From: Fusobacterium mortiferum ATCC 9817
GTDB taxonomy: Bacteria; Fusobacteriota; Fusobacteriia; Fusobacteriales; Fusobacteriaceae
Length of the DNA: 64,000 nucleotides
NCBI RefSeq assembly: GCF_000158195.2
Contig: NZ_GL987987.1
Location: 62,001 to 126,000, forward strand
Reading direction: 5' to 3'
The position numbers and the translations under genes are program-made. A model generated the notes under the pieces. It had not been told where the DNA came from. It saw only the letters and a list, made by a program, of their open reading frames with translations, and made no database searches. Positions 24,292-27,948 of this stretch are shown piece by piece (position 1 is the first letter of the stretch; each line of letters starts with the position of its first letter).

Positions 24292-25566
24292 TTATTTTTT
24301 AGGAATAAATTTAAAGATTATTCCAGTAAGGATAGCTGGGCATACCCAAGCAAGTCCTAATGAATCAAAAGGAAGATTAGAGAAAAGAGAATCTAAAAAA
24401 CTTAATTTTAATCCAATAGCTTGTAGAGCTTCAAAAGAACTTATTATCCCTGCTCCAATAACAGTACCTAAGAATATATTATCGTTTTTAATTTTATTTT
24501 TTAAAATATTTAAGAATATTAGAGCAATAGCAATAGGGTATAAAAATACTAAAACTGGTACAGCAAGTTTTATAATAATATCTACACCAAACATTGCAAA
24601 AATAATACTAATTATTGTAGTTATAATAGCTAATTTTTCGTAAGAAATTTTTGTTAAATCACTGAAGTAGTCAGCTACTGTTGCAGTAAGTCCAATAGCA
24701 GTAGTGATACAAGCTCCTGTTACACAGATAGCTAAAATAATTTTTCCAAAATTTCCTAGAAGAAGTTTAACTATTGAGGTAAGTAAATCTACACTTCCAG
24801 TTCCAGAAGGTAAAATATTAGTAACAGTACTACCAATAAAACCAAGTCCACCATAGACAATAGCTAATCCTCCAATAGCTATGATACTTGTTTGAATTAA
24901 GAAAGAAAACTCTTGTTTCTCAGATAAATTTTTATCTTTTCTAATGGATTTTAGAATAATATCTGAAAATACAATAGCAGCTAAAGTATCCATAGTTTGA
25001 TAACCATTTAAAAATCCATATTTAAATGGAGGTAACTCTTTAGTAAGAGAAATTGATTCTCCAATTGGAAAGAAAACCCCTTTAAATATAATAAGAGCTA
25101 AAACAATTAGAAGAATAGGAGTAAGGATAGCTCCAACTCTATCTACAACTTTACTTGATTTTAAAGAGAAAAGTAGTGAAACTCCAAAGAAAATTATGAT
25201 AAAAATTATTTTATAAGTATTGTAGTTTGAAATATCTTTAGAAAAAATCATTTCAAAAGCAGTAGCTCCAGTTCTAGGTAATGCTAGAAGCGGTCCTATT
25301 GAAAGAATAAGAGCAATATTAAAAAATTTAGCAAATTTAGGGGAAACTCTCTCTGCAAAACTATCTAAGTCTTTACCAGCAAAGGCAGAAGTAAATATTG
25401 CTAAAAGAGGAAATCCCGCTCCTGTCAATATAAATCCTAATGTAGCTAAAGACCATTCATTTCCATTTATAAACCCAACCATTGGAGGGAAAATTAGATT
25501 TCCAGCACCAAATAACATAGCAAACAGGGCAAAGCCTGTAATAATAACATCTTTTTTCTTATACAT
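24292..25566 (-). CDS. brnQ: Branched-chain amino acid:cation symporter BrnQ
   Basis: 424 aa, LIVCS family. It takes up leucine, isoleucine and valine with Na+ or H+ across the inner membrane. N-terminal signature MLFGAGNLIFPPMVGFINGNEW, then about 12 hydrophobic segments and the family landmark PRTGATAFEM. Length is normal. Start at 25566 follows AGGAGGAG. It has its own promoter and terminator and is transcribed away from the arginine-linked leader locus to its right. First clearly core gene after the island. Confidence 0.95.
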   Translation of the reverse strand: MYKKKDVIITGFALFAMLFGAGNLIFPPMVGFINGNEWSLATLGFILTGAGFPLLAIFTSAFAGKDLDSFAERVSPKFAKFFNIALILSIGPLLALPRTGATAFEMIFSKDISNYNTYKIIFIIIFFGVSLLFSLKSSKVVDRVGAILTPILLIVLALIIFKGVFFPIGESISLTKELPPFKYGFLNGYQTMDTLAAIVFSDIILKSIRKDKNLSEKQEFSFLIQTSIIAIGGLAIVYGGLGFIGSTVTNILPSGTGSVDLLTSIVKLLLGNFGKIILAICVTGACITTAIGLTATVADYFSDLTKISYEKLAIITTIISIIFAMFGVDIIIKLAVPVLVFLYPIAIALIFLNILKNKIKNDNIFLGTVIGAGIISSFEALQAIGLKLSFLDSLFSNLPFDSLGLAWVCPAILTGIIFKFIPKK

Positions 25567-25594: not shown

Positions 25595-25623
25595 ATTTTA
25601 TAAAAATATCTTATCAATGTCAA
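25595..25623 (-). promoter_or_regulatory. brnQ promoter
   Basis: On the minus strand TTGACA (25623-25618), 17 bases, TAAAAT (25600-25595). It sits back to back with the rightward promoter, only 17 bases between the two -35 boxes, so a regulator binding there could control both. Confidence 0.65.
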
Positions 25624-25640: not shown

Positions 25641-25669
25641 TTGACAACAAAGAAATATTGTGATAAGAT
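25641..25669 (+). promoter_or_regulatory. Promoter of the leader-ORF/binding protein/argG transcript
   Basis: TTGACA (25641-25646), 17 bases, TAAGAT (25664-25669). Transcription from here gives a 5' region of about 320 bases containing a leader ORF and a terminator before the binding-protein gene. Confidence 0.7.
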
Positions 25670-25701
25670 TATTTCGAATCAAGGAAAAGGAGGAAGAGAA
25701 A

Positions 25702-25815
25702 ATGTTAATGACAACATTATTAAGGAACAGGAAATATAATACAACTATATATAATTTCTTTTGTAATGAGTCTGTTAATATTTTTATTGATTCTTCCAGA
25801 AGGAATATTTTTTAA
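25702..25815 (+). CDS. Possible leader peptide (37 aa) with arginine AGG codons
   Basis: Frame with a strong ribosome site (AAAGGAGGAAGAG) and normal spacing. The product begins MLMTTLLRNRKYNTTIYNFF and ends DSSRRNIF. Arg codons fall at 8, 10, 33 and 34, three of them AGG in a genome that mostly uses AGA; Leu TTA codons at 2, 6 and 7 are also present. It ends about 100 bases before an intrinsic terminator, the layout of ribosome-mediated attenuation. Too short and odd to be an enzyme; alternatively the remnant of a gene. Confidence 0.5.
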   Translation: MLMTTLLRNRKYNTTIYNFFCNESVNIFIDSSRRNIF

Positions 25816-25912
25816 TACTTAGGTGTATAATATTTCTTGAGACTTTCAAAAATGATATATATCTAGTATTGGGGAGTATTTGGATATAGAATCATATATA
25901 TATTTTGTTATC

Positions 25913-25949
25913 AACAGATTAGCATTCAAAAGATGTTAATCTGTTTTTT
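25913..25949 (+). terminator. Attenuator-like terminator upstream of the binding-protein gene
   Basis: AACAGATTAGCA (25913-25924) pairs with TGTTAATCTGTT (25934-25945) with one G-U, nine-base loop, then TTTT. It lies between the leader ORF and the ribosome site of the next gene, so it would stop most transcripts unless read through. The stretch between leader ORF and terminator (about 25,816-25,912) holds alternating ATATAT segments that could form alternative pairings. Confidence 0.75.
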
Positions 25950-25994
25950 ATTTATCACTATATTAAACTATAAAACATTTTAGGAGGAGATTTT

Positions 25995-26723
25995 ATGAAA
26001 AAATTATTTTTAAAGGCGGTTTTAGTTTCTATGTTTGCTGTATCTGGGCTTAGTTTTGGAGCTGATAAGCTCTATGTAGGAACAAATGCAGAGTTTGAAC
26101 CGTTCGAATATCTACAAAATGGTGAAATTGTAGGATTTGATGTGGATTTGATGGAAGAGATAGCAAAATCTATGGGGAAAGAGATAGAATGGAAAAATAT
26201 AGCTTTTGATGGACTACTTCCAGCTCTTCAAGCTAAAAAACTAGATGTAATTATAGCTGGAATGACAGCTACTGAAGAGAGAAAGAAATTTGTAAACTTT
26301 TCACAAACTTATTATGAATCAAATCAAATGATGTTAGTTCATGAAAAAAATCCAGTTGTAAAATCTTTTGATGAATTAAAAGGTCATGATGTAGGAGTTG
26401 TGCTAGGATATACTGGAGATATAGCAGTAAGTGAGATAGAGGGAGTGAAAGTTCATAGATATAATGCTACATCAGAAGCTATTATGGCTCTTAAAGCACA
26501 AAAAATAGATGTAGTTGTATTAGATTCTGAACCAGCTAAAAATTATGCTAAACAAAATCCAGAGTTGAAGTTAATCAACACAGATGTAGCAAAAGAGGAG
26601 TATGCAATAGCAGTAGGAAAAAATGATAAAGAGTTAGTTGAAGATATTGATAAAGCTTTAACAGAGTTAAAAGCAAATGGAACTTATGATAAATTAATAA
26701 AAAAATATTTTTCTGAGAAATAA
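25995..26723 (+). CDS. Amino-acid ABC transporter substrate-binding protein
   Basis: 242 aa, SBP_bac_3 (family 3) periplasmic binding protein. Signal peptide MKKLFLKAVLVSMFAVSGLSFGA, then YVGTNAEFEPFEY, GFDVDLMEEIAKSMG, DVIIAGMTATEERKK and ending KANGTYDKLIKKYF, all typical of polar or basic amino-acid binders. No permease or ATPase gene is adjacent, so it must partner with a transporter encoded elsewhere. It lies 25 bases upstream of argG with its own ribosome site, and the pairing suggests arginine, lysine or a precursor as ligand. TAGGAGGAG precedes the ATG. Confidence 0.85.
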   Translation: MKKLFLKAVLVSMFAVSGLSFGADKLYVGTNAEFEPFEYLQNGEIVGFDVDLMEEIAKSMGKEIEWKNIAFDGLLPALQAKKLDVIIAGMTATEERKKFVNFSQTYYESNQMMLVHEKNPVVKSFDELKGHDVGVVLGYTGDIAVSEIEGVKVHRYNATSEAIMALKAQKIDVVVLDSEPAKNYAKQNPELKLINTDVAKEEYAIAVGKNDKELVEDIDKALTELKANGTYDKLIKKYFSEK

Positions 26724-26748: not shown

Positions 26749-27948
26749 ATGAAAGAAAAGGTAGTATTAGCTTATTCAGGAGGGCTTGACACTTCAGTAA
26801 TTGTACCATGGTTAAAGGAAAACTATAATGATGTGGAAGTAATAGCTGTTTCAGTAGATGTAGGTCAAAAAGATGATTTTATGGAAGTAGAAAAAAGAGC
26901 ACTAGCTATTGGAGCTTCTAAATTCTATGTAGTAGATAAAAAAGATGAGTTAGTAAATGATTTTATTTTTCCTATGTTAAAATCAGGAGCTAAATATGAA
27001 AACGAATATCTATTAGGGACATCAATCGCAAGACCTGTAATAGCTAAAGCTTTAGTAGAGATAGCTTTAAAAGAGGGAGCTAATTATATAGCACATGGAG
27101 CAACTGGAAAAGGAAATGACCAAGTTAGATTTGAGTTAGGAGTAAAAGCTTTAGCTCCTAATATAAAAATAATAGCTCCTTGGAGAGTCTGGGATATAAA
27201 ATCTCGTAAACAAGAGATAGAATATCTAAAATCTCATAATATAGATTTACCATTTAAAGAGGGAGTTACATATAGTAGAGATGAAAATCTTTTCCATATT
27301 AGCCATGAGGGACAAGAGTTAGAATCTCCAGCTAATGCACCTAAATATGATAATGTACTTCAATGGGTACTTCCTTTAGAAAAGGCAAGTGATACTGCTG
27401 AATGCATATCTATTGAATTTGTAAAAGGTGTTCCTACAAAATTAAATGGAGAAGCTCTAGATGGAGTTACTCTAATTAATAAATTAAATGATATAGGGGC
27501 AAAACATGGAGTTGGAGTATTAGATTTATTAGAAAATCGTCTTGTAGGAATGAAATCAAGAGGTGTGTATGAAACTCCAGGAGGAACAATATTATATTTT
27601 GCTCATGAAGAGTTAGAAAGACTTTGTTTAGATAGAGATACTCTTCAAGCTAAAATGAAATTATCTCATGATATGGCTAAATTAATATATAATGGACAGT
27701 GGTTCACTAAATATAGAAAATCTCTTTCAGCTTTTGTAGAGGAAACTCAAAAGTATGTAACAGGAATAGTAAATTTAAAATTATACAAAGGAAATATTAT
27801 TTTAAATGGAATGGAATCAGATTACTCTCTATATTCTCAAGATTTCTCAACATTTGACGAAGATACAGTATATAATCAAAAAGATGCAGAAGGATTTATT
27901 AATCTATTTGGATTACCAATAAAAATAGAAAGTCTATTAAGAAAATAG
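26749..27948 (+). CDS. argG: Argininosuccinate synthase
   Basis: 399 aa, full length. Joins citrulline and aspartate with ATP to make argininosuccinate, the penultimate step of arginine synthesis. N-terminal PP-loop [11 protein letters not shown], then [14 protein letters not shown] and [13 protein letters not shown] are diagnostic. argH is not next to it. It is co-transcribed with the binding protein under the leader/attenuator and closed by a terminator. GAGGAGAGG precedes the ATG. Confidence 0.97.

What the first reader, a model, noticed from the sequence alone, without database searches (positions are those of the whole stretch)
25641..25994. Leader ORF with Arg codons and attenuator before an amino-acid binding protein and argG
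A 37-codon ORF with a strong ribosome site, AGG Arg codons at positions 8, 10 and 34 (AGA at 33), is followed by an ATATAT-rich stretch and a strong terminator before genes for amino-acid binding and arginine synthesis. This matches ribosome-mediated attenuation. Leu codons in the ORF leave the sensed amino acid open.
Basis: partly seen in the sequence, partly recalled or inferred. Interest (0 to 1): 0.6.

Follow-up and report, generated by a model that had tools for sequence, protein, structure and literature searches.

The report
Arginine attenuator regulon in fusobacteria
Ahead of an arginine-synthesis gene lies a tiny reading frame whose rare arginine codons appear to act as an arginine gauge that decides whether transcription continues; the same device recurs before other arginine genes in this bacterium and its relatives, none of which showed the usual arginine repressor.

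Summary
The window holds a promoter, a 37-codon leader ORF (25702-25815) with a strong ribosome site and AGG at codons 8 and 10, and an intrinsic terminator (25913-25945) before an SBP_bac_3 binding-protein gene and argG. I found equivalent leaders before the same operon in 25 genomes, this one included. The peptide diverges, but all 25 have AGG at codon 7 or 8, although AGG is only 6.5% of Arg codons in the window's genes. Leu is not invariant there, and Arg33/34 are not conserved, so the gauge is AGG8/AGG10. A segment inside the ORF (25758-25777) pairs either with the control-codon strand or with the terminator's 5' arm; both pairings covary between clades (joint permutation p about 1e-5). 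The same genome has two more AGG leaders with terminators, before nhaC-argH and before an amino-acid ABC transporter operon. No Fusobacteriaceae genome searched (61) has an ArgR above cut-off. Best reading: trp-type ribosome-mediated attenuation sensing arginine (AGG-decoding) supply, working as an arginine regulon. The mechanism type is known; a limited literature search found no report of it for arginine genes in fusobacteria. Regulation itself is untested.

The parts
25641..25669 (+). sigma-70-type promoter, TTGACA-17-TAAGAT; start of transcription expected near 25676
   Evidence: 10 of 12 consensus bases, TG before the -10; similar promoter-like sequence just upstream of most related leaders; start site inferred
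25689..25693 (+). Shine-Dalgarno GGAGG of the leader ORF
   Evidence: sequence; GGAGG, GGAG or GGGAG kept in most related leaders
25702..25815 (+). leader ORF, MLMTTLLRNRKYNTTIYNFFCNESVNIFIDSSRRNIF
   Evidence: equivalent ORF in 25 genomes, this one included
25723..25731 (+). control codons AGG8 (25723-25725) and AGG10 (25729-25731)
   Evidence: AGG at codon 7 or 8 in 25 of 25 leaders; AGG is 6.5% of Arg codons in window genes
25702..25728 (+). strand 1: pairs with strand 2 when no ribosome sits on it
   Evidence: fold and covarying 1:2 pairing between clades, p = 1.6e-4
25758..25777 (+). strand 2, CTTTTGTAATGAGTCTGTTA: antiterminator strand inside the leader ORF
   Evidence: pairs with strand 3 at -11.7 kcal/mol; cognate pairing better than swapped between clades, p = 3e-4 to 2e-3
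25913..25931 (+). strand 3: 5' arm and loop of the terminator
25932..25950 (+). strand 4 and T tail of the intrinsic terminator
   Evidence: 14 pairs, loop 5, T-rich tail
25802..25902 (+). large AT-rich hairpin between stop codon and terminator; not a conserved part
   Evidence: fold; the spacing from stop codon to terminator varies from 30 to 132 nt among argG-type leaders
25995..26723 (+). regulated gene 1: SBP_bac_3 amino-acid ABC binding protein, closest to Lys/Arg/ornithine and Gln binders
   Evidence: PF00497 above cut-off; TIGR01096 best match but below its cut-off
26749..27948 (+). regulated gene 2: argG, argininosuccinate synthase
   Evidence: TIGR00032 and NF001770 above cut-off

Best explanation
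A ribosome-mediated transcription attenuator that gauges arginine, more exactly the supply of Arg-tRNA that decodes AGG. A ribosome starts on the 37-codon leader as RNA polymerase moves ahead. With arginine plentiful it passes AGG8 and AGG10, covers strand 2 (25758-25777) and then leaves it to re-pair with strand 1, so strand 3 pairs with strand 4 and transcription stops near 25945. With arginine short it stalls with AGG8 or AGG10 in the A site; strand 1 is buried, strand 2 is free, 2:3 forms before strand 4 is made, and the binding-protein and argG genes are transcribed. The same device controls at least two more operons in this genome (nhaC-argH; an amino-acid ABC transporter), so it acts as an arginine regulon where no ArgR is found. 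Shown here: anatomy, conservation of AGG, covariation of 1:2 and 2:3, terminators, the other two sites, absence of ArgR matches. Inferred: stalling, timing, response to arginine.
For: AGG at codon 7 or 8 in 25 of 25 leaders of the argG operon in seven genera; 90 of 124 Arg codons in 40 leaders are AGG against 38 of 584 in window genes. Strand 2 pairs with its own strand 1 and strand 3 better than with those of other clades (2:3 p = 3e-4 to 2e-3; 1:2 p = 1.6e-4, joint p about 1e-5). Folding with a ribosome at AGG8 frees strand 2 to pair with 3 (0.66) while no ribosome, or one at the stop, gives 1:2 (0.84). Own genome: leader MKLRQRHIIIII before nhaC-argH and MLRNFRIRTNNKKNNFNSLVFEID (AGG 3, 6, 8) before an ABC permease-ATPase-binding protein operon, each with promoter and terminator. 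Separate argH leaders with AGG in relatives. Strongly Arg-rich leaders in another genus, such as MRKIRMRHRRTKNRISV. No ArgR above cut-off in 61 Fusobacteriaceae genomes while the control set rings. Single-copy tRNA-Arg(CCU), several tRNA-Arg(UCU).
Against: At equilibrium the complete terminator outcompetes the antiterminator even with a stalled ribosome (2:3 only 0.03, 3:4 0.86), so the model needs a kinetic decision. Duplex strength against shuffles is modest for single sequences (p about 0.05 in the window's clade; no signal in genus g4); support comes from the comparison between clades. No expression, ribosome or termination data exist here. In some genomes the operon has no recognisable leader (G040; many g13 and g14 genomes).
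Confidence: 0.88

Rival explanations
1. Nascent-peptide arrest: the leader peptide itself stalls the ribosome when it binds arginine or ornithine, as with TnaC or SpeFL.
For: LRNRKY is well conserved within two genera.
Against: Across genera only the Arg residues stay; the C-terminal half, where arrest peptides act, diverges. Codon 8 is too early for a chain long enough to be read in the exit tunnel. Conservation of the AAUG(UU) stretch is explained by RNA pairing. No Pfam match for five leaders, SpeFL's DUF2618 included.
Confidence: 0.04
2. The ORF is translated but the response is to general translation slowdown (antibiotics, ribosome stress) rather than to arginine.
For: Short ORF leaders with Arg-Leu-Arg motifs are known in antibiotic-responsive uORFs (PMC8632094).
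Against: Downstream genes are arginine synthesis and amino-acid transport in the cases examined; Arg codons are enriched and are the rare AGG.
Confidence: 0.04
3. A metabolite-binding riboswitch or a T-box controls the terminator, and the ORF is incidental.
For: The leader RNA is highly structured (z -6.7).
Against: No Rfam match at gathering thresholds in the whole window, only chance-level hits at E up to 10 in the leader; the region between ORF and terminator varies from 30 to 132 nt; conserved features lie inside the ORF and in the terminator.
Confidence: 0.02
4. The sensed amino acid is not arginine (leucine, or asparagine/lysine).
For: TTA codons at 2, 6 and 7; Asn9 and Lys11 conserved within the genus.
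Against: Leu7 is Ile, Met, Phe or Ala in relatives; Asn9 and Lys11 are replaced between genera; only Arg at 7/8 is invariant.
Confidence: 0.02

Closest known systems
trp/his/leu/thr-type ribosome-mediated attenuators of enterobacteria
   Same: promoter, short translated ORF with codons of the product amino acid, three mutually exclusive pairings ending in an intrinsic terminator, biosynthetic gene downstream
   Different: arginine instead; strand 2 lies inside the ORF about 10 codons past the control codons; antiterminator reaches into the terminator loop and bridges a long spacer; control region is a pair of AGG codons at 8 and 10, not a long run; found in fusobacteria
speF leader orf34 (SpeFL) of Salmonella (PMC6386406)
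   Same: 34-codon uORF whose Arg codons at 12-13 (AGG CGG) sense arginine; an Arg codon near the stop is not needed, as here Arg33/34 are not conserved
   Different: controls ornithine decarboxylase through Rho and RNase G, conserved peptide DUF2618; here an intrinsic terminator, arginine synthesis and transport genes, peptide not conserved; no Pfam match
uORF candidates found by intergenic screens, e.g. cysS leader with Cys codons (PMC8632094)
   Same: codon-based attenuator predicted by comparison upstream of an amino-acid gene
   Different: other amino acid and phylum; that screen included Fusobacteria, but the passages read mention no arginine leader there
ArgR/AhrC arginine repressor regulons
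   Same: same target genes (argG, argH, arginine transport)
   Different: protein repressor; no ArgR above cut-off in 61 Fusobacteriaceae genomes

Membership tests
ribosome-mediated transcription attenuator (trp/his/leu type) | short ORF with ribosome site directly after a promoter | tested here: met
   (sequence level; translation itself not shown)
ribosome-mediated transcription attenuator (trp/his/leu type) | codons for the amino acid made or imported by the downstream genes, conserved | tested here: met
   AGG at codon 7/8 in 25 of 25 leaders; argG downstream
ribosome-mediated transcription attenuator (trp/his/leu type) | intrinsic terminator before the first structural gene | tested here: met
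   terminator-like hairpins found after all 40 leaders
ribosome-mediated transcription attenuator (trp/his/leu type) | mutually exclusive 1:2, 2:3 and 3:4 pairings, kept by covariation | tested here: met
   individual sequences are only weakly significant against shuffles
ribosome-mediated transcription attenuator (trp/his/leu type) | read-through rises on starvation for that amino acid and depends on leader translation | not testable with these tools
   needs expression data
SpeFL / orf34 arrest peptide | conserved DUF2618 peptide core (HIRRT.H) | tested here: not met
   no Pfam match for five leaders at E up to 10; peptides diverge
T-box or known riboswitch | match to an Rfam model | tested here: not met

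The most novel reading that the evidence does not exclude
Fusobacteria run their arginine economy without ArgR by a set of separate attenuators that all read one rare codon, AGG, so that the charging of the single-copy tRNA-Arg(CCU), not arginine as such, is the regulon's input. The invariance of AGG rather than AGA would be selection on the isoacceptor.
Probability: 0.5. Interest if true: 0.72.

Novelty: new member of a known kind. Interest (0 to 1): 0.6.

Why it matters
Textbook codon-based attenuators of biosynthetic operons sense Trp, His, Leu, Ile/Val, Thr or Phe; arginine synthesis is the textbook case of a protein repressor (general knowledge). Here arginine synthesis and transport genes of a bacterial family in which no ArgR was found appear to be tied together by RNA attenuators instead. 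The strict choice of AGG gives a natural test of the theory that the most sensitively charged isoacceptor is chosen as the control codon (PMC1183508). It also gives a handle on gene control in fusobacteria, including gut and oral species, where few regulators are known.

Tried and rejected
A nucleotide search for the AGGAAYAGGAAA core in the own genome found, besides this site, matches of which the eight read in context lay inside ordinary genes, so other leaders are not recognisable by DNA similarity; a ribosome-site/ORF/AGG pattern was needed. That pattern's total number of hits is no higher than its reversed control (60 against 58), so single hits were accepted only with a promoter, a terminator and a fitting gene downstream. 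A collection scan for the core found only one convincing record, Fusobacterium mortiferum An814. Leu sensing, nascent-peptide arrest, riboswitch and T-box were considered and rejected (see rivals). The Arg33/34 pair near the stop codon was considered as a second stall site and rejected as not conserved. The large hairpin 25802-25902 was considered part of the switch and rejected because its region is not conserved. Leptotrichiaceae were only sampled.

Full report
The observation. At 25641-25669 lies a promoter (TTGACA-17-TAAGAT), at 25689 a GGAGG, at 25702-25815 a 37-codon ORF, at 25913-25945 a terminator of 14 pairs with a T tail, then a binding-protein gene (25995-26723) and argG (26749-27948). 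The leader folds far better than shuffles (z -6.7). A scan for ribosome site + short ORF with AGG (or two Arg codons) near its start + terminator returns only this ORF in the window; a similar scan returns none in 241,694 strand-bases of unrelated loci from related genomes.

Conservation. A search with the peptide found clear relatives in the same genus, always before the same two genes. Taking the stretch upstream of argG in 40 further regions of the class showed an equivalent leader in seven genera of Fusobacteriaceae: promoter-like sequence, ribosome site, ORF of 17-40 codons, terminator. Beyond the genus the peptides share little but Arg at codon 7 or 8: MLKALKLRNRK, MLVTLKLRNKK, MTMRRILRTQT, MMTILNLRLHN, MLRTIVFRIRK, MLLTVLRKRNS, MSKVLVLRQRK and others. 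All 25 have AGG there. In the window's genes AGG is 38 of 584 Arg codons (6.5%, against 88% AGA), while in the 40 leaders it is 90 of 124. Leu7 is Ile, Met, Phe or Ala in some, and Arg33/34 change already between close relatives. The sensed amino acid is therefore most likely arginine, through AGG8 and mostly AGG10.

The switch. The segment 25758-25777 inside the ORF is complementary to the terminator's 5' arm and loop (CUUUUG.AAUG..UCUGUU with AACAGAUUAGCAUUCAAAAG). In another genus the same place reads UUUAAUGUUAGUC and the terminator arm GACCAACAUUGAA. Swapping strand 2 and strand 3 between clades weakens the pairing: permutation p = 3.2e-4 for 12 clade representatives, 2.1e-3 for seven. 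Strand 2 also pairs with strand 1, which holds the start of the ORF and AGG8, and this covaries too: p = 1.6e-4; swapping strand 2 against both partners gives p about 1e-5. Per sequence the 2:3 duplex is only modestly better than shuffles (p about 0.05 in the window's clade, no signal in genus g4), so the support rests on the comparison. The representatives are related, which the permutation does not model; shared descent alone does not make two separate segments complementary.

Folding with ribosome footprints. With AGG8 in the A site and the transcript just past strand 3, strand 2 pairs with strand 3 (0.66); with no ribosome, or one at the stop codon, strand 2 pairs with strand 1 (0.84); once strand 4 exists the terminator wins at equilibrium in every state. 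The decision must therefore be kinetic, made as polymerase passes. This is inferred.

A regulon. The own genome's argH lies elsewhere, behind an nhaC-type antiporter gene, and that operon has a leader MKLRQRHIIIII with AGG at 4 and a terminator. A pattern search of the whole genome for ribosome site + ATG + AGG..AGR returned this leader, the window's leader, and a third: MLRNFRIRTNNKKNNFNSLVFEID, AGG at 3, 6 and 8, with TTGACA/TATAAT promoter and a terminator, before an amino-acid ABC permease, ATPase and binding protein. Relatives have AGG leaders before argH or its operon (MKTMLLRKQ..., MLNIRTRRIRIK..., MLNLRSRK..., MLLRRERQ...). One genus has strongly Arg-rich leaders such as MRKIRMRHRRTKNRISV. 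AGG leaders also occur between argH and argG in one genus of a second family. No ArgR (PF01316) is found above cut-off in 61 Fusobacteriaceae genomes, while 9 of the 14 control genomes, such as E. coli and B. subtilis, give a match.

Comparison with the known. It works like the trp/his/leu attenuators and meets each defining feature that sequence can test. The nearest arginine case is Salmonella speF orf34, where two Arg codons sense arginine but act through Rho and RNase G on ornithine decarboxylase (PMC6386406); its peptide family is not matched here. No Rfam family matches. Searches of the open-access literature found no arginine attenuator in fusobacteria; the one screen that covered Fusobacteria does not mention it in the passages read, and the F. 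nucleatum transcriptome paper contains none of the terms searched. Subscription papers and preprints were not searchable, so novelty is provisional.

Verdict. The kind is known; the amino acid, the lineage and the strict use of AGG are, as far as could be checked, new.

Noticed in passing
L037:1501-1560 (genome G011, same genus): The leader's promoter and ribosome site are fused at GGAGGA to the 3' end of the binding-protein gene: the leader and most of the operon have been deleted, and argG is absent from that genome.
   Followed up: partly
G000:C5:25329-27800 (L350:230-2699): A third AGG leader, MLRNFRIRTNNKKNNFNSLVFEID, before an amino-acid ABC transporter operon of the same genome, possibly an arginine importer.
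   Followed up: yes
G000:C7:185519-183000 (L352, L225): A second leader, MKLRQRHIIIII, before nhaC-argH; the nhaC-like protein has weak similarity to the ArcD arginine/ornithine antiporter.
   Followed up: yes
L181:2329, L181:4103, L182:668 on the reversed strand (genome G015): Three strongly Arg-rich leaders in one genome, two of them in the same stretch (before an ABC permease and before argH), suggesting repeated attenuators within one arginine cluster.
   Followed up: partly
genomes G087, G093, G079 (a second family of the order): Short AGG leaders between argH and argG, followed by terminators in G087 and G093: the device may reach beyond Fusobacteriaceae.
   Followed up: partly
window 25595-25623, minus strand: A near-consensus divergent promoter for the brnQ-type branched-chain amino-acid carrier gene (24292-25566) abuts the leader promoter; whether the two are co-regulated is unknown.
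   Followed up: no
window 25802-25902: A very stable AT-rich hairpin between leader stop codon and terminator that is not conserved in relatives; it may only bring strands 2 and 3 together.
   Followed up: partly
genome G000: No ornithine carbamoyltransferase above cut-off, so arginine may be made only from imported or otherwise supplied citrulline via argG and argH.
   Followed up: no
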